Source: Chloroflexota bacterium (GTDB lineage Bacteria; Chloroflexota; Anaerolineae; Promineifilales; Promineifilaceae). From it: a stretch of DNA of 42,048 nucleotides. The notes beneath the pieces are model-generated. The model was not told where the DNA came from. It saw only the letters and a program-made list of their open reading frames with translations, and made no database searches. The stretch covers positions 1 through 42,048 of the forward strand of contig JAKEFB010000078.1 of assembly GCA_022616275.1 (NCBI GenBank), read 5' to 3'. The position numbers and the translations under genes were made by a program. Of this stretch, positions 24,398-29,515 are shown in pieces. How positions within the stretch are numbered: the first letter of the stretch is position 1; each line of letters begins with the position of its first letter.

Positions 24398-25585
24398 CTA
24401 CAAGCGCAGCAGACATTGGCCAATCACGTCCACGGCCGTATCAATCTGCTCCCGGTTGATAATCAACGGTGGGCAGAGGCGGACGACGTTCTCGCCGGAG
24501 CCGATAATCACCAGCCCCTGTTCGCGGGCGGCGGCCAGCAGCGGCGCGACGGGCACGGTCAGCTCCAGCCCCACCAACAGCCCGGCGCCGCGCACCTGGA
24601 CGATTTTGTCGGAAGCTAATTCGCACAGCCGCTGCTGCAGATAAAAACCGTTCTCGCGCACGGCCGCCAGGAACTCCGGCCGGTTGACCCGGTCAAAGAC
24701 TATCTGGGCAGCGCGGCAGACCAGCGGCCCGCCGGCAAAGGTGCTGCCGTGGTCGCCCGGCTGCATCACCTGGGCCACCTGCTCGGTGACCAGCGTCACG
24801 CCAATCGGCAGCCCGCCGGCCAGCGGCTTGGCCAGGGTCATGACGTCCGGCGTCACCCCGTAAGCCTGGTGCGCCCACAGGTGGCCCGTCCGGCCGAGGC
24901 CGCACTGGACCTCGTCAAAGATCAGCAGCGCCTGGTGTTCGTCGCACAACTGCCGCAACCCCTTCAGAAATTCAGGCGTGGCCGGGTGAATGCCCCCCTC
25001 CCCCTGGACCGGTTCGACGATGACGGCGCAAGTTTCGGCGTTGATGGCCGCCGCGGCCGATTCCAGGTCGTTAAAGGTAGCAAACGTCACCCCCGGCACC
25101 AGCGGCGCAAACGGCTCACGGTACTTGTCCTTGTGGGTCACGGCCAGCGCGCCCATAGACCGGCCGTGAAAGCTGTCGCTGAAGGCCACGAAGCCTGTCT
25201 TGTCCGGCCGGCCGCTGCTTTGTCTGGCCCACTTGCGGGCAAACTTCAGCGCTGCCTCGTTGGCCTCGCTGCCGGAGTTGCAGAAAAAGACCCGGTCGGC
25301 AAAAGAGTTTTCCACCAGCCGCCGGGCCAGCCCGATTTGGGGCGCGGTATGGTACAGGTTGCTGGTGTGCGTCAGCCGGCCGGCCTGCTCCGCCACCACC
25401 TCGGCCCATTCCGGGTCGGCGTGCCCCAGGGCGTTCACGGCAATCCCGGCCATAAAGTCCAGGTATTGCCGGCCGTCGCTATCGTACAGGTATACCCCCT
25501 GTCCATGCGTAAAAACCACCTCCGGCCGGGCGTACGTCGGCACCAGATACTGCGCCGCCGCTTCAACGATGTCTGCTGCTTTCAC
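24398..25585 (-). CDS. argD: Acetylornithine aminotransferase
   Basis: PLP-dependent class III transaminase converting N-acetylglutamate semialdehyde to N-acetylornithine. Features: YDSDGRQYLDFMAGIAVNALG, FFCNSGSEANEAALKFARKW, LLIFDEVQCGLGRTGHLWAH and the PLP lysine in DVMTLAKPLAGGLPIGVTL. GTG at 25585 is the likely start because AGAGGAGAG lies 8 nt upstream; a TTG at 25615 would put the ribosome site inside the gene. This gives 395 residues, normal for ArgD. Upstream is a GCGAAT repeat that runs into the end of argB. Confidence 0.95.
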   Translation of the reverse strand: MKAADIVEAAAQYLVPTYARPEVVFTHGQGVYLYDSDGRQYLDFMAGIAVNALGHADPEWAEVVAEQAGRLTHTSNLYHTAPQIGLARRLVENSFADRVFFCNSGSEANEAALKFARKWARQSSGRPDKTGFVAFSDSFHGRSMGALAVTHKDKYREPFAPLVPGVTFATFNDLESAAAAINAETCAVIVEPVQGEGGIHPATPEFLKGLRQLCDEHQALLIFDEVQCGLGRTGHLWAHQAYGVTPDVMTLAKPLAGGLPIGVTLVTEQVAQVMQPGDHGSTFAGGPLVCRAAQIVFDRVNRPEFLAAVRENGFYLQQRLCELASDKIVQVRGAGLLVGLELTVPVAPLLAAAREQGLVIIGSGENVVRLCPPLIINREQIDTAVDVIGQCLLRL

Positions 25586-25617: not shown

Positions 25618-25700
25618 ACGCGAATCACGCCAATAAACGAATGGCGCGAATATTTTTATTAAATTCGCGTCATTCGCCTATTCGTATCATTCGTGATTTT
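25618..25700. repeat. GCGAAT-family palindromic repeat overlapping the argB 3' end
   Basis: Words such as GCGAATCACGCC, AACGAATGGCGCGAATA and their inverse (AATTCGCGTCATTCGCC, ATTCGTATCATTCGTGATT) form a long imperfect inverted repeat with outer arms AATCACG (25623-25629) and CGTGATT (25692-25698). The right half lies inside the argB coding sequence and supplies its last nine or so codons and its stop. Related copies: 5280-5320 and 30083-30173. Confidence 0.85.
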
Positions 25701-26449
25701 TCTTCAGTTCCCACAAATAATGTCCCGCCGCCGTTGCCGAGGCCGGCCAGGTTGACAATCCGGGCGCGGTGTACGCCCCGGCCGACCACCGCCAGCGCCG
25801 CTCGCACCTTGGGAACCATCCCGCCGCCGATGACGCCGCTCTCGATCAGCGCTTCTGTCTGGCCGGCCGTCAACGAGCGGACCACCTGACCCTCCTGGTC
25901 CAGCACGCCGGGCACGTTGGAGACGAAGGTCAGCATCCCGGCCGGCAGGGCGGCGGCCAGCGCCCCGGCCGCCTCGTCGGCGTTGACGTTGTACACCTGC
26001 CCATCCAGCCCCAGCGAAATGGGCGCAATCACCGGGGTGATTCCCTGGCTCACCAACTGCCGCACCAGCTCCGGCCGCACCGCCGTCACCTGGCCAACGT
26101 AGCCCAGGTCGGCCGTGGGGTGCTGCTTCTTCACGCAGCGCAGCAGCCCGCCGTCCACCCCACTTAGCCCAACCGCGTCCACCCCGGCCGCCAGCAGCGC
26201 GGCGACGATGACCTTGTTCGTCTGGCCGCACAACACCATCTGGGCCACCGCCAGCGACTCGGCGTCTGTCACCCGCAGCCCATCCACCATCACCGGCCGC
26301 AGCCCCAGCCGCCGCTGCATCTCCCCAATCGCCTTCCCGCCGCCATGCACCACCACCACCGCCTCCCCCAACCCGGCGACCACCCGCCCCAGCCCGGCCA
26401 AAAACCCCTCGTCATCCAACTCATTGCCACCAATCTTTAGAAGTTGCAT
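25670..26449 (-). CDS. argB: Acetylglutamate kinase
   Basis: Phosphorylates N-acetylglutamate, usually the feedback-controlled step. The 259-residue amino-acid-kinase fold has LLKIGGNELD (phosphate-binding lysine and glycines), VVVVHGGGKAIGEMQ, GLSGVDGGLLRC, VYNVNADEAAGALAAAL and the C-terminal ALAVVGRGVHRARIVNLAG. ATG at 26449 (MQLLKIGG) is preferred over an in-frame start at 26479. The last residues after GGGTLFVGTEEK (SRMIRIGE) are encoded by the GCGAAT repeat. No LysW gene is present, so an arginine role is favoured over the LysW-dependent lysine variant. argC lies upstream beyond a palindromic element. Confidence 0.94.
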   Translation of the reverse strand: MQLLKIGGNELDDEGFLAGLGRVVAGLGEAVVVVHGGGKAIGEMQRRLGLRPVMVDGLRVTDAESLAVAQMVLCGQTNKVIVAALLAAGVDAVGLSGVDGGLLRCVKKQHPTADLGYVGQVTAVRPELVRQLVSQGITPVIAPISLGLDGQVYNVNADEAAGALAAALPAGMLTFVSNVPGVLDQEGQVVRSLTAGQTEALIESGVIGGGMVPKVRAALAVVGRGVHRARIVNLAGLGNGGGTLFVGTEEKSRMIRIGE

Positions 26450-26574: not shown

Positions 26575-27582
26575 CTACTCAACCAGGCCCCTTACTTCTT
26601 CTAGCCTAAACATTACGTTCATATTTTGCACCGCCTGGCCGGCCGCCCCTTTCACCAAATTATCAATGGCCGAGGTCAGAATCAGCATGTCCCCGGCCAG
26701 CGTCAAGGCAATAACGCACAGGTTCGTATGGTTGGCGTGGGCCAGCGTAGCCAGCGTCCCGGCCGGCAGAACCTTGACGAACGGCTCATCCGCATATGTT
26801 TCCTGGTACAACGCGCGCAGCGCCCCCTCGCTCCAGCCGTTGTTGAGCGGTACGTAAATGGTCGAGAGGATGCCGCGTGGAACGGGCAGCAGGTGGGGCG
26901 AAAAGATGAGCGGCGGTGGGTCGGCCTGCCAGCAGCGCAGCCCTTGCTCCATTTCCGGCAGGTGGCGGTGTACCCGGCCGATCTTGTACGGCGAAAAGTT
27001 ATTGGCTACCTCGACAAAGTGGGTGTCCTGCCGCGGCGCCCGGCCGGCCCCGGACACGCCCGACTTGGAGTCGGCGATGATCGTCCCCCCCACCGCCCCG
27101 GCCTCCAGCAGCGGCCGGAGCGCCAGCAGGACGCTCGTTGGGTAACAGCCGGGGTTGGCCACCAGCCGGGCTGTTCGCAGCGCCGGCCGGGCAACCTCCG
27201 TCAGCCCATAGACCGCCCCGGCCAGCAGGTGCGGGGCCGGGTGCTCCTGGCCGTACCAGGCCGCGTAGACGGCCGGGTCCTTCAGCCGAAAGTCGGCGCT
27301 CAAGTCTACCACTCGCACGCCGGCGGCCAGCGCCGTCTCGGCCACCGGCGCGGCCACCCCGTGCGGCAGGCACAGAAAGAGCACGTCCACCTCCCCCAGC
27401 GCCGCTTCCTCCTGGGCCACCAACCGCAACGGCGGCGCAGCCGGGTACACGTCCGACAACAACCGGCCGGCCTGCGACTGCGACGTGGCAAACTGAACGG
27501 TAACGGCCGGATGCCGCCCCAAAATCCGCGCCAACTCAAACCCCGTATACCCCGTCGCCCCAATAATACCGGCTCGAATCAT
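26575..27582 (-). CDS. argC: N-acetyl-gamma-glutamyl-phosphate reductase
   Basis: NADPH-dependent reduction of acetylglutamyl phosphate to the semialdehyde. The 335-residue product has AGIIGATGYTGFELARILGR at the N-terminus, FLCLPHGVA, and the catalytic cysteine in VANPGCYPTSVLLALRPLL. GAGRAPRQDTHFVEV and the catalytic-histidine region HRHLPEMEQGL follow. ATG at 27582 has GGAGG 4 nt upstream; an in-frame reading from 27609 would include that site. It is the first gene of the arginine operon and lies directly behind a 270-nt leader with a leader peptide and terminator. Confidence 0.96.
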   Translation of the reverse strand: MIRAGIIGATGYTGFELARILGRHPAVTVQFATSQSQAGRLLSDVYPAAPPLRLVAQEEAALGEVDVLFLCLPHGVAAPVAETALAAGVRVVDLSADFRLKDPAVYAAWYGQEHPAPHLLAGAVYGLTEVARPALRTARLVANPGCYPTSVLLALRPLLEAGAVGGTIIADSKSGVSGAGRAPRQDTHFVEVANNFSPYKIGRVHRHLPEMEQGLRCWQADPPPLIFSPHLLPVPRGILSTIYVPLNNGWSEGALRALYQETYADEPFVKVLPAGTLATLAHANHTNLCVIALTLAGDMLILTSAIDNLVKGAAGQAVQNMNVMFRLEEVRGLVE

Positions 27583-27599
27583 ATTTCCTCCGAACGTAG

Positions 27600-27690
27600 C
27601 GATGAGCAATGAGCGCAGTTGGCAAGGCCAACTACGAGCGATGAGCGATGAGTCAAATAACCTTTGCGTCTTTGCGTCTTTGCGTCAAAG
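27600..27690. repeat. GATGAGC and TTTGCGTC tandem repeats in the argC leader
   Basis: GATGAGCAATGAGCG and GAGCGATGAGCGATGAG flank a 17-nt palindrome AGTTGGCAAGGCCAACT (27617-27633), followed by TTTGCGTC three times (27663-27686). The palindrome shares its GGC-CTTG-CC core with those at 9838 and 22534. It lies between the leader terminator and the argC ribosome-binding site. Confidence 0.8.
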
Positions 27691-27694
27691 TGGC

Positions 27695-27738
27695 AAAAAA
27701 CAAAAAACCCGCCAACCGGTGCTTCGGTCTGGCGGGTT
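27695..27738 (-). terminator. Intrinsic terminator (attenuator) upstream of argC
   Basis: On the minus strand the arms AACCCGCCA (27738-27730) and TGGCGGGTT (27714-27706) pair over 9 bp, with an inner ACCG/CGGT helix. TTTTTTG-TTTTTTG follows down to 27695. It lies 29 nt beyond the leader-peptide stop codon and 113 nt before the argC start, i.e. in the 5' leader rather than after a gene. Confidence 0.88.
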
Positions 27739-27803
27739 CTCGTGTACTTGCGCTGTTGTGTCGCTACTCAGGCAACCCTAAAAACCAGACCAATGGTCTG
27801 GCG
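27726..27803 (-). promoter_or_regulatory. Attenuator pairing segments 1, 2 and 3 of the arg leader
   Basis: On the minus strand segment 1 (CGCCAGACC, 27803-27795) sits on and just after the last CGC arginine codon. Segment 2 (GGTCTGG, 27791-27785) lies before the leader stop, and segment 3 (CGCCAGACC, 27734-27726) is the 5' arm of the terminator. Segments 1 and 3 are identical 9-mers, so segment 2 can pair with either. The 2:3 helix is extended by GGGTT (in segment 2's downstream flank) with AACCC, which removes the whole terminator arm. This is the 1:2, 2:3, 3:4 logic of trp/his-type attenuators. Confidence 0.7.
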
Positions 27804-27851
27804 AGGGCGGCGCACGCGAGGCGCGCAAAGAATAGCGGCCGTTGTTAGCAT
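27768..27851 (-). CDS. Putative arginine-rich leader peptide of the arg operon
   Basis: An ATG at 27851 opens 27 codons ending in TGA at 27770-27768. The middle reads CAPRVRRPRQ, using four CGC arginine codons within six positions (CGC GTG CGC CGC CCT CGC), and a fifth arginine (AGG) follows near the end. There is no ribosome-binding site. A TTGACA/TACCAT promoter is placed so that transcription would begin at or next to the A of this ATG, so the peptide would be translated from a leaderless message. The segment after the arginine codons (CCAGACC) is part of the attenuator pairing scheme. Function as a sensor of charged tRNA-Arg is inferred from the layout. Confidence 0.65.
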   Translation of the reverse strand: MLTTAAILCAPRVRRPRQTIGLVFRVA

Positions 27852-27858
27852 GAGGACT

Positions 27859-27886
27859 ATGGTAACAGATGTAAAGTCCGTGTCAA
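27859..27886 (-). promoter_or_regulatory. Predicted promoter of the arginine operon
   Basis: Minus-strand -35 TTGACA (27886-27881, perfect consensus), 16-nt spacer, -10 TACCAT (27864-27859). Seven nt later comes the ATG of the leader peptide (27851), so the message is probably leaderless. Confidence 0.65.
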
Positions 27887-28018
27887 TCCATTGGGGTTGT
27901 TCAATCTGCACAATATTTTTTGCCACGAATTGCACGAATTGCACGAACCCAATCCGTCAATCGTAAGAAATCATTCACGGGATATCCAAACAGAGGAAAT
28001 TCGCACCGTGTCCCCTCC

Positions 28019-29515
28019 CTACGGCAAATCCGTCTCCCCCATCAAATACCGGTCGCACTCCCGCCCGGCCGCCCGCCCCTCGTGGATCGCCCAGACCACC
28101 AGGCTCTGCCCCCGCCGCGCATCCCCGGCCGCAAACACCCCTGGCACGTTCGTCGCATACCGGCCGGCCGCTGCCCGCATGTTCGACCGCTCGTCCCGCT
28201 CCACCCCCAGTTGGGCCAGCAGCCCCTCCTCCGGCCCCAGGAAGCCCATGGCCAGCAGTACCAGTTGCGCCGGCCAGCGCCGCTCTGTGCCGGGGATCTC
28301 GCGGGGAGCCGGGGCCGGCCGGCCGTTCCCGCCGGCCGCCCAGCTCACCGCCACCGTCTCCACCGCCGCCACCCGCCCCTGCCCGTCGCCAATGAACCGC
28401 TTCGTCATCAGGCCGTACCGGCGCGGGTCGTCGCCAAAGAGGGCCGCCGCCTCTTCCTGGCCGTAGTCCATCTTGTAGACCCGCGGCCACTGCGGCCAGG
28501 GATTGTCTGGGGCGCGTTCGTCGGGCGGCCGGAGCAAAATTTCAAACTGGACCAGGCTGCGGCAACCGTGGCGCAGCGCCGTGGCCACGCAGTCCGTCCC
28601 CGTGTCCCCCCCGCCAATGACGATCACGTCCCGGCCTTCGGCCGAAGTGTACCGGCCGTCCCGGTGCTGGCTGTCCAGCAGGCTTTTGGTGTTGGCGTAC
28701 AGAAAGTCAACGGCAAAGTGGAGACCCTCTAACGGCCGCCCCTCCACTACCAGGTCGCGCGGCCGGGTCGCGCCAGTACAGAGCACGATGGCCTCAAACC
28801 CCCGGCGCAATTCGGCCGCCAACACATCCCGGCCAACCTCCACGTTGGTCACGAATTCAATACCGGCCCCGGCCATGAGGTCTACCCGCCGCTGGACGAT
28901 GGCTTTGTCCAGCTTCATATTGGGAATCCCATACATCAGCAGCCCCCCCACCCTGTCGGCCCGCTCAAAGACCGTGACCTGGTGACCGACCTTGTTCAGT
29001 TGGTCGGCGCAGGCCAGCCCGGCCGGGCCAGAGCCAACCACCGCCACTCGCCGGCCGGTCCGCCGGGCCGGCCGCTCCGGCGCCACCCACCCCTCGGCAA
29101 AGGCCCGTTCGATAATGGCATATTCCAGGCTCTTGATCGTCACCGGCGGATCGTAAATCCCCAGCGTGCAGGCCGCCTCGCACGGTGCCGGGCAGACCAG
29201 CCCGGTAAACTCCGGGAAGTTGTTCGTCCGCTCCAGCCGCAGATACGCCTCCCGCCACAACCCCCGGTACACCAGGTCGTTCCACTCCGGGATGAGGTTG
29301 TTGATCGGGCAACCGGAAGCCATGCCGTTGAGCACTGTTCCGGTGTGGCAGAAGGGAATACCACAGTCCATGCAGCGCGCTGCCTGCCGCTGCAGCCGCT
29401 CTTCCGGCAAATGTAAATGCAGCGGCCGCCAGTCCCGCACTCGCTCTTCCGCCGGCCGCTCGGCCGGCCCCTCGCGCGGGTAAGTCAAGAAAGCAGTGGA
29501 CCTGTCTGTAGTCAT
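28019..29515 (-). CDS. gltD: Glutamate synthase small subunit
   Basis: FAD/NAD(P)H and Fe-S subunit that feeds electrons to GltB. The 498-residue product has the N-terminal cysteine clusters CMDCGIPFCHTG, GCPINNLIPEWNDLVY and CPAPCEAACTLGI. Two dinucleotide-binding motifs follow: RVAVVGSGPAGLACADQLNK (FAD) and DVIVIGGGDTGTDCVATAL (NADPH). The C-terminal NVPGVFAAGDARRGQSLVVWAI completes the FAD site. ATG at 29515 gives the usual N-terminus but has no clear ribosome site. It is separated from gltB by an acetyltransferase gene and two repeats; all three genes run the same way. The gap to the arg promoter (27887-28018) contains only GAATTGCAC tandem words. Confidence 0.96.
   Translation of the reverse strand: MTTDRSTAFLTYPREGPAERPAEERVRDWRPLHLHLPEERLQRQAARCMDCGIPFCHTGTVLNGMASGCPINNLIPEWNDLVYRGLWREAYLRLERTNNFPEFTGLVCPAPCEAACTLGIYDPPVTIKSLEYAIIERAFAEGWVAPERPARRTGRRVAVVGSGPAGLACADQLNKVGHQVTVFERADRVGGLLMYGIPNMKLDKAIVQRRVDLMAGAGIEFVTNVEVGRDVLAAELRRGFEAIVLCTGATRPRDLVVEGRPLEGLHFAVDFLYANTKSLLDSQHRDGRYTSAEGRDVIVIGGGDTGTDCVATALRHGCRSLVQFEILLRPPDERAPDNPWPQWPRVYKMDYGQEEAAALFGDDPRRYGLMTKRFIGDGQGRVAAVETVAVSWAAGGNGRPAPAPREIPGTERRWPAQLVLLAMGFLGPEEGLLAQLGVERDERSNMRAAAGRYATNVPGVFAAGDARRGQSLVVWAIHEGRAAGRECDRYLMGETDLP

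What the first reader, a model, noticed from the sequence alone, without database searches (positions are those of the whole stretch)
27695..27886. Ribosome-mediated arginine attenuator with a leaderless, Arg-codon-rich leader peptide
Seen: a TTGACA-N16-TACCAT promoter placed so that transcription starts at the ATG of a 27-codon ORF; four CGC codons in six positions; two identical CGCCAGACC segments (27803-27795 and 27734-27726) competing for one GGTCTGG (27791-27785); and a 9-bp terminator with two T-runs whose 5' arm is the second copy. The 2:3 helix gains GGGTT:AACCC, so it fully disarms the terminator. A ribosome stalled at the CGC codons would cover segment 1 and favour 2:3 (read-through). 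One reaching the TGA would cover the segment 2 flank and allow termination. Known: this is the logic of trp/his/ilv attenuators. Bacterial arg operons are usually controlled by ArgR or T-boxes, so an Arg leader peptide of this kind would be unusual.
Basis: partly seen in the sequence, partly recalled or inferred. Interest (0 to 1): 0.87.

Follow-up and report, generated by a model that had tools for sequence, protein, structure and literature searches.

The report
Arginine-codon leader switch before argC
In front of its arginine-making genes this bacterium of the phylum Chloroflexota carries a tiny arginine-rich reading frame and an RNA switch that very probably lets the genes be transcribed only when ribosomes run short of arginine, and relatives reuse the same switch with other codons for other amino acids.

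Summary
Of 36 argC leaders parsed (the window's and 35 others, Chloroflexota), 35 have at least 3 Arg in 7 codons. A promoter ends 6-10 nt before the ATG in 32, and all 36 have a terminator. In 31 alignable leaders the terminator shows double changes at 9 of 13 pairs and the antiterminator core is 99.1% paired. Codon -3 is Arg in 28 of 28 in-frame rows, spelled CGC, CGT or CGA. ArgR was found in 0 of 60 genomes.

A covariance model built from the Arg leaders also found the scaffold with Ala codons before alaS (22 loci), Lys codons before lysX, and Arg codons before argD and argG. This codon swap is the strongest evidence that the codons are read. Lys leaders, six of them in tandem, precede 10 of 10 lysX loci examined; Phe leaders precede pheS, also in this genome. 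T-boxes coexist for other genes.

The mechanism is the trp/his kind; its Arg, Ala and Lys versions and Chloroflexota host turned up in none of ten paper searches. Nothing is bench-tested.

The parts
27881..27886 (-). -35 box TTGACA
   Evidence: Sequence; only promoter-like site listed in 27000-28600; similar box at the same place in 32 of 36 leaders.
27859..27864 (-). -10 box TACCAT, 16 nt spacer, preceded by TG
   Evidence: 7 nt to the ATG; 6-10 nt in the 32 of 36 leaders with a score of 9/12 or more.
27768..27851 (-). Leader ORF of 27 codons, MLTTAAILCAPRVRRPRQTIGLVFRVA*, inferred leaderless start
   Evidence: Translation; Arg-rich ORF at the same place in 35 of 36 parsed leaders.
27801..27818 (-). 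Regulatory codons CGC GTG CGC CGC CCT CGC (Arg at codons 12, 14, 15, 17)
   Evidence: codon -3 relative to segment 1 is Arg in 28 of 28 in-frame rows.
27795..27803 (-). Segment 1, CGCCAGACC
   Evidence: pairs with segment 2 in 95.8% of cells over 31 leaders.
27785..27791 (-). Segment 2 core, GGTCTGG
   Evidence: last six bases invariant in the 31 aligned leaders; pairs with segment 3 in 99.1% of cells.
27774..27778 (-). Segment 2 flank GGGTT, can pair with AACCC of segment 3
   Evidence: in the register counted on the alignment the flank pairs in 68.4% of cells; the window itself fits the neighbouring register.
27726..27738 (-). Segment 3, AACCCGCCAGACC, 5' arm of the terminator
27706..27738 (-). 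Terminator hairpin 3:4
   Evidence: Present in the minimum-energy fold; 9 of 13 pairs show changes on both sides in relatives, 0 of 500 shuffles as high.
27695..27707 (-). T-run TTTTTTGTTTTTT after the terminator (first two T lie in the stem)
26575..27582 (-). argC, N-acetyl-gamma-glutamyl-phosphate reductase, first gene controlled
   Evidence: NCBIfam TIGR01850 argC, 389 bits, cut-off 234.
25670..26443 (-). argB, acetylglutamate kinase (start codon not settled)
   Evidence: NCBIfam TIGR00761 argB, 215.5 bits, cut-off 151.
24398..25579 (-). argD, acetylornithine aminotransferase (start codon not settled)
   Evidence: NCBIfam TIGR00707 argD, 510 bits, cut-off 410.

Best explanation
It is a ribosome-mediated transcription attenuator of the argC-argB-argD genes, with arginine codons as the sensor and (in this lineage) a leaderless leader peptide. 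RNA polymerase starts at or within about 3 nt of the ATG. A ribosome starts on the 5' end and follows it. When Arg-tRNA is scarce, the ribosome stalls in the CGC run and covers segment 1, so segment 2 pairs with segment 3 (2:3), the terminator cannot form and argCBD are transcribed. When Arg-tRNA is plentiful, the ribosome reads through to TGA: while it sits there it covers the 3' part of segment 2, and once it leaves, 1:2 re-forms; either way segment 3 is free to make the 3:4 terminator. Shown here in silico: anatomy, conservation, terminator covariation, codon swapping that matches the downstream gene, and predicted folds for each ribosome position. Inferred: the transcription start, the stall, the coupling of ribosome and polymerase, that argB and argD share the transcript, and the physiological response.
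For: (1) Conservation: 35 of 36 parsed argC leaders have at least 3 Arg in 7 codons; the exception (L017) has an in-frame stop before the run. (2) Codon-level selection: 167 of 842 codons of the 35 leaders are Arg, spelled CGC 83, CGT 55, AGG 11, CGA 9, CGG 8, AGA 1; codon -3 is Arg in 28 of 28 in-frame rows with three spellings. (3) RNA switch: 3:4 has 24 double-changed cells at 9 of 13 pairs, 0 of 500 shuffles as high; 2:3 core 99.1% paired, one pair A-U instead of G-C in 4 leaders; 1:2 95.8% paired. (4) Folding with ribosome masks: at the best stall position 2:3 forms (at least 6.0 of 7 pairs expected in 30 of 30 Arg leaders, at least 5.0 in 19 of 19 Ala leaders tested); the open state favours 1:2 over 2:3 in 22 of 30 and 19 of 19. 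(5) Codon swap: model R1, built only from Arg leaders, finds the scaffold before alaS with Ala runs (16 of 18 leaders with a clear start; Arg runs 0 of 18), before lysX with a Lys run (L179), and before argD and argG with Arg runs. (6) Pairing between the stretch after the run and the terminator's 5' side exceeds dinucleotide shuffles (p<0.05) in 10 of 17 Arg leaders that were not used for R1. (7) ArgR found in 0 of 60 genomes, in 9 of 14 control genomes. (8) T-boxes are plentiful in these genomes but none of those listed lies on an argC locus.
Against: No transcript, 5' end, readthrough or arginine response has been measured. L017 (a 3-contig genome) has a stop codon before its Arg run, which would lock the switch off unless it is an error. 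In 8 of 30 Arg leaders the open-state fold does not prefer 1:2 over 2:3, and averaged over all stall positions 2:3 can be weak (means down to 2.8 pairs). 1:2 shows one compensatory cell (no more than shuffles, 176 of 500); for 2:3 the number of pairs with double changes is no more than shuffles (201 of 500). 5 of 40 family genomes gave no model match at E<=1e-4, some of them incomplete. Of 20 argC upstreams outside the class only 3 have a clear Arg leader. The argG leader L183 fails the antiterminator-pairing test (p 0.33). The own genome's alaS has no Ala leader.
Confidence: 0.93

Rival explanations
1. An arrest peptide: the nascent Arg-rich peptide binds free arginine in the exit tunnel and stalls the ribosome, as in the fungal arginine attenuator peptide (recalled), rather than codons sensing Arg-tRNA.
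For: The peptide is Arg-rich and short; the part after the run often reads QTxGLVF.
Against: What follows the run tracks the pairing segments, not a peptide: L002, L011 and L013 read segment 1 in another frame and L018, L020, L025 and L028 stop earlier than most. The same scaffold carries Ala, Lys or Arg runs according to the downstream gene. The logic would also be inverted: stalling at high arginine would turn the operon on.
Confidence: 0.03
2. A DNA operator: the perfect palindrome CCAGACC-ATT-GGTCTGG just downstream of the promoter is the site of a repressor such as ArgR.
For: The segment 1-segment 2 unit is a perfect 17-base palindrome in the window.
Against: ArgR found in 0 of 60 genomes. 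In relatives most changes keep RNA pairing by G-U but break DNA symmetry, e.g. G-U instead of A-U in 10 of 31 at one pair. A separate terminator with a further copy of the segment is conserved and covaries.
Confidence: 0.02
3. A T-box or riboswitch that senses tRNA or arginine directly, with the ORF incidental.
For: Terminator/antiterminator architecture; T-boxes are common in these genomes (37 of 37 searched have at least one match, 6 in the own genome).
Against: No Rfam match at gathering scores in the window, only sub-threshold matches to other families in this stretch. Arg codons are conserved at amino-acid level.
Confidence: 0.01
4. The hairpins are ordinary terminators of the upstream gltD gene, and the Arg run is chance in GC-rich DNA.
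For: The element lies downstream of a gltD-like ORF on the same strand; the Arg cluster alone has a chance of 1.6% in base shuffles.
Against: Conserved upstream of argC in relatives and, on the same scaffold, of alaS, lysX, argD or argG; a promoter lies right before the ATG.
Confidence: 0.01

Closest known systems
Ribosome-mediated attenuators of proteobacteria (trp, his, ilv, leu, thr, pheA, pheST); textbook knowledge, recalled
   Same: Leader ORF with a cluster of codons for the pathway's amino acid; mutually exclusive 1:2, 2:3 and 3:4 helices; intrinsic terminator; same stall-gives-readthrough logic.
   Different: Arg (and Ala, Lys) are not among the classical specificities I know; here the ORF starts at or near the inferred 5' end; host is Chloroflexota; one scaffold is re-targeted by codon swapping.
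Leaderless leader-peptide attenuators: C. glutamicum ilvBNC (PMC11857589, passages seen), S. meliloti trpL (PMC7298713, passages seen), mycobacterial polycysteine ORFs (seen only as a reference title in PMC13236596)
   Same: Leader ORF begins at or one nucleotide from the 5' end of the transcript and controls the downstream operon through codons of the pathway's amino acid.
   Different: Other amino acids and other phyla; for mycobacterial cys leaders no conserved terminator hairpins are reported (PMC1262725, passages seen).
Salmonella speF leader orf34 (PMC6386406, abstract and passages seen)
   Same: A bacterial leader ORF where pausing at consecutive Arg codons changes mRNA folding.
   Different: Two Arg codons, Rho-dependent termination, RNase G and RBS masking; controls ornithine decarboxylase, not arginine synthesis; its ORF has a Shine-Dalgarno and a long leader.
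Actinobacterial attenuators (PMC1262725, passages seen)
   Same: Leader-peptide attenuators for trp operons, trpS, leuS and candidates for ilv outside proteobacteria.
   Different: That paper reports no conserved RNA structures for arginine and lysine operons in Actinobacteria.
Fungal arginine attenuator peptide (arg-2/CPA1), recalled
   Same: Short upstream ORF tied to arginine supply of an arginine gene.
   Different: Eukaryotic translation control by a conserved arrest peptide; no terminator.

Membership tests
Ribosome-mediated transcription attenuator (trp/his kind) | Short leader ORF with a cluster of codons for the amino acid of the downstream pathway | tested here: met
   35 of 36 parsed argC leaders; a screen over 20 amino acids (promoter required) finds Arg in 31 of 37 argC upstreams, next Pro in 3.
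Ribosome-mediated transcription attenuator (trp/his kind) | Codons, not peptide sequence, are conserved | tested here: met
   CGC/CGT/CGA at codon -3 in 28 of 28 in-frame rows; codons swapped to Ala before alaS on the same scaffold.
Ribosome-mediated transcription attenuator (trp/his kind) | Mutually exclusive 1:2, 2:3, 3:4 helices | tested here: met
   covariation strong for 3:4, slight for 2:3, almost none for 1:2 because the segments barely vary; 8 of 30 Arg leaders do not prefer 1:2 when open.
Ribosome-mediated transcription attenuator (trp/his kind) | Intrinsic terminator before the first gene | tested here: met
   Hairpin plus T-rich tail found by script in 36 of 36 parsed leaders.
Ribosome-mediated transcription attenuator (trp/his kind) | Ribosome at the stop codon blocks segment 2 | tested here: inconclusive
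   Assumed footprint covers 3 of 7 core bases in 21 of 30, 7 of 7 in 4, none in 5.
Ribosome-mediated transcription attenuator (trp/his kind) | Readthrough rises on starvation for the amino acid | not testable with these tools
   Needs a reporter experiment.
Leaderless mRNA | Promoter placed so that the transcript starts at the start codon | tested here: met
   Promoter of 9/12 or better with a 6-10 nt gap in 32 of 36 leaders against 0.43% of 13,848 control positions.
Leaderless mRNA | Mapped 5' end at the start codon | not testable with these tools
   No transcript data.
ArgR-controlled arg operon | ArgR encoded in the genome | tested here: not met
   PF01316 in 0 of 60 genomes (own included), control rings in 9 of 14.
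T-box or known riboswitch | Match to the Rfam family at this locus | tested here: not met
   No gathering match in the window; nothing above threshold in this stretch. T-boxes exist elsewhere in the genome.
Arginine arrest peptide | Conserved peptide sequence independent of RNA pairing | tested here: not met
   Frame differences and early stops after the run in relatives.

The most novel reading that the evidence does not exclude
The Arg switch is one member of a modular, codon-swappable attenuator family that, beside T-boxes, is a main RNA control of amino-acid genes in these Chloroflexota and stands in for the missing ArgR. One RNA scaffold was copied and re-targeted by replacing only the codon run (Arg before argC, argD and argG; Ala before alaS; Lys before lysX). 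Similar leaderless designs on other sequences serve further Lys and Phe genes, Lys attenuators are stacked in tandem so that two stalls gate one operon, and the same gene (pheS) is under a Phe leader in one lineage and a T-box in others.
Probability: 0.75. Interest if true: 0.85.

Novelty: new variant of a known kind. Interest (0 to 1): 0.77.

Why it matters
It would add arginine, alanine and lysine to the specificities of leader-peptide attenuation known to me and extend the mechanism to Chloroflexota. It also offers a natural codon-swap experiment: the same RNA switch with a different codon run in front of a different gene, so the claim that the codons are the sensor can be checked across genomes and then directly with a reporter. 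It explains how arginine synthesis can be controlled in a lineage where ArgR was not found. The leader ORFs, too short for gene finders, give ready amino-acid specificities for annotating operons in uncultured bacteria.

Tried and rejected
Rfam scan for a known RNA: none at gathering scores, only noise in the stretch. ArgR as the regulator: not found. DNA operator reading of the palindrome: G-U pairs in relatives speak for RNA. Ala leader in the own genome: alaS found at G000:C71 but its upstream has no Ala run. Trp leaders before trpE as a negative control: only ORFs with two adjacent Trp codons were sought; 4 of 18 loci have one, 0.6-1.3 kb away and unlike a leader by eye (promoters not scored; one locus offered only 200 nt). 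The T-box search explains this: 13 of the 18 trpE loci have a listed T-box within 2 kb upstream on the same strand.

A first antiterminator-pairing test, with base shuffles and without the terminator loop, gave p<0.05 in 20 of 30 near Arg, 10 of 17 other Arg, 3 of 11 first Lys, 1 of 6 second Lys and 9 of 17 Phe leaders. A second, with the loop included (Lys segment 3 lies partly there) and dinucleotide shuffles, gave 19 of 30, 10 of 17, 9 of 11, 4 of 6 and 5 of 18. The second was run after seeing the first. Fisher p-values treat related leaders as independent and are too small.

Rows left out: L008, L024 and L030 (contig ends) and L022 (leader start beyond the slice, run visible) were not parsed. 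Of 80 loci I read the upstream of 16, four of them genomes already held; L044 and L070 have no such leader. In one search, four of 22 Ala hits were left out (L174 at a contig end; L176, L233 and L235 without an ATG at the model start); one search leaves out L176, L233 and L235, and L017. L246 (GTG start) was left out. Lys (except L179) and Phe leaders were found by looking for those runs, so their 100% is by construction; with a promoter required, and all amino acids screened alike, the figures are 9 of 10 and 18 of 30 (Ala runs also appear in 8 of the 30 pheS upstreams). The lysX loci came from argC-like second matches; one (G054) was also taken because of a weak R1 match. Most weak R1 matches were not examined.

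Full report
What is there. argC, argB and argD follow (NCBIfam). The genome is an 8.5-Mb, 309-contig assembly.

Is it more than chance? From the single sequence only weakly: 1.6% of base shuffles and 6.2% of codon shuffles reach such an Arg cluster. From relatives, clearly. argC-like matches were found in 55 of 60 genomes, the own included; upstream DNA of 30 loci (window included) was read and of 16 more from named records. 36 leaders were parsed: 26 of the 30 and 10 of the 16. 35 of 36 have at least three Arg in seven codons. 32 of 36 have a promoter of at least 9/12 ending 6-10 nt before the ATG, against 0.43% of 13,848 control positions in the same DNA; by eye L041 is a further case. The distance from ATG to the terminator's 5' arm is 95-129 nt.

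Selection on codons. 167 of 842 codons of the 35 leaders are Arg (19.8%), mostly CGC (83) and CGT (55). Anchored on segment 1, codon -3 is Arg in 28 of 28 in-frame rows (L017 among them), spelled CGC 14, CGT 12 and CGA 2; codons -6 and -5 are Arg in 22 and 18. Three of the 31 aligned leaders (L002, L011, L013, from the sister family of the order) have segment 1 in another frame and keep the Arg run, so run and pairing are separate constraints.

The RNA switch. In 31 alignable leaders the consensus fold is 1:2 plus 3:4. 3:4: 94.3% of cells paired, 9 of 13 pairs changed on both sides in at least one leader, 24 such cells, 0 of 500 shuffles as high. 2:3 core: 99.1% paired; the outer pair is A-U instead of G-C in four leaders, but the number of pairs with double changes is not beyond shuffles (201 of 500); the five-pair flank is 68.4% paired in the register counted, and the window fits the neighbouring register. 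1:2: 95.8% paired, with variation mostly by G-U and one double change. Masking a ribosome of assumed footprint (A site +12 nt), with the RNA ending at segment 3: stalled at the best regulatory codon, at least 6.0 of 7 pairs of 2:3 are expected in 30 of 30 Arg leaders, though averages over all stall positions go down to 2.8; with no ribosome, 1:2 beats 2:3 in 22 of 30. For the window leader the values are 7.0 pairs of 2:3 at best when stalled, and 7.0 pairs of 1:2 and none of 2:3 when open. L017 has no readable run and was not in this test.

The codon swap. Model R1, built from the Arg leaders only, was searched in 298 class genomes (99 with a match at E<=0.01, many weak and not examined) and 40 family genomes (35 with a match at E<=1e-4). 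Besides argC leaders, strong matches were the same scaffold with Ala codons before alaS (22 loci; an alaS-like ORF is visible downstream in 21, in L177 and L178 only 0.7-0.8 kb away behind another ORF; L174 is at a contig end), for example MKQSCVISAAAAAQTSGLV and MNQFSSIIQNSAAAAAGQTSGL; a Lys run before lysX (L179); and Arg runs before argD (L182) and argG-argH (L183). One alaS, lysX, argD, argG and pheS each was checked against NCBIfam with the first 120-228 residues: best matches as named, partial scores below the whole-protein cut-offs as expected for pieces. In the 18 Ala leaders with a clear start, 16 have at least three Ala in seven and none has such an Arg run; two have fewer Ala. Ala leaders keep 1:2 in 90.3%, 2:3 in 96.1% and 3:4 in 95.5% of cells, with little covariation beyond shuffles. 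In 19 of 19 tested, 2:3 forms at the best stall (at least 5.0 pairs) and 1:2 beats 2:3 when open. Some weak R1 matches (L181, L184-L187, L238-L240) have, by eye, no such leader.

Related designs. Ten lysX upstreams all have a Lys-run ORF, and six have two Lys leaders, each with a terminator, in series. pheS is preceded by a leaderless Phe-run ORF in 18 of 30 loci, including the window's own genome (L144/L265, MKQMLFVFDFFFSSAANAASAWEVRLA). Scored against dinucleotide shuffles, pairing between the stretch after the run and the terminator's 5' side reaches p<0.05 in 19 of 30 near Arg, 10 of 17 other Arg, 9 of 11 first Lys, 4 of 6 second Lys and 5 of 18 Phe leaders (an earlier version is).

T-boxes beside it. 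All 37 genomes searched have T-box matches (36 of 37 over the gathering score), six in the own genome. In the capped list, 13 of the 18 trpE loci have a T-box within 2 kb upstream, and pheS of G040, G041, G045 and G047, which are outside the order, has one directly upstream, while the family uses a Phe leader there. None of the listed T-boxes lies on an argC locus.

How far it reaches. In ten class members outside the order, seven have an Arg-run leader before argC, one has a single Arg, one is cut by a contig end, and in one argC seems to follow another gene directly; several of these have, by eye, the ATG well away from the -10, so leaderlessness is a lineage trait rather than part of the mechanism. 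In 20 genomes of the phylum outside the class, three (family f80) have a leaderless Arg leader with its own pairing sequences, GGTTCGG/CCGAGCC in one and GGTTCAG/CTGAACC in another; one more (L331) is unclear, and 16 (one cut at 244 nt) show no Arg-rich ORF together with a terminator.

Regulator context. ArgR (PF01316) is found in 0 of 60 genomes, while 9 of 14 control genomes ring.

Literature. Ten searches of the open library listed no arginine-, alanine- or lysine-codon leader attenuator with an intrinsic terminator and none in Chloroflexi; I read listings and, for seven papers, passages only; most subscription papers are not held, and I recall but could not check comparative-genomic surveys of attenuators by other groups. 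Papers seen in passages: PMC6386406, PMC1262725, PMC3160421, PMC11857589, PMC7298713, PMC13236596, PMC3766115. PMC3160421 lists leaderless genes in 4 of 12 Chloroflexi genomes; here the pattern TTGACA-N16-18-TANNNT-N4-9-ATG occurs 46 times in the own genome against 1 for the reversed pattern, though many of those ATGs open only tiny or chance ORFs.

Verdict. It works like a trp/his attenuator and meets the sequence-testable features of one, except that blocking of segment 2 by a ribosome at the stop codon stays inconclusive; the physiological features are untested.

Noticed in passing
L255, L256, L257, L260, L261, L262 (upstream of lysX): Two Lys-rich leader ORFs, each with its own terminator, in series before lysX in 6 of 10 loci: tandem leader-peptide attenuators, apparently from one promoter.
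   Followed up: partly
G000:C12:3533 (L144, L265): Leaderless Phe-rich leader with terminator before pheS in the window's own genome; a Phe-run leader with promoter in 18 of 30 pheS loci.
   Followed up: yes
   Followed up: partly
L017 / L114 (G024:C1:3208789-3208935): argC leader with an in-frame stop before the Arg run in a 3-contig genome, while congeners G003, G150 and G313 have intact leaders; a decayed or locked-off switch, or an assembly error.
   Followed up: partly
L224, bases 1200-1400 (G000:C71, upstream of alaS): The own genome's alaS has a promoter-like site but no Ala leader, although many family members have one.
   Followed up: no
window 27602-27690: Short direct repeats (GACGCAAA x3, CTCATCG repeats) between terminator and argC; other simple repeats fill this spacer in L022, L027 and L019.
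   Followed up: no
G000, 46 sites: Promoter-then-ATG pattern occurs 46 times against 1 for the reversed control, suggesting that leaderless starts may be common in this genome; some open full-length genes.
   Followed up: partly
L044 upstream of argC: An Atribacteria record's argC is preceded by what looks by eye like a T-box (GGGTGGCACC stretch); not tested.
   Followed up: no
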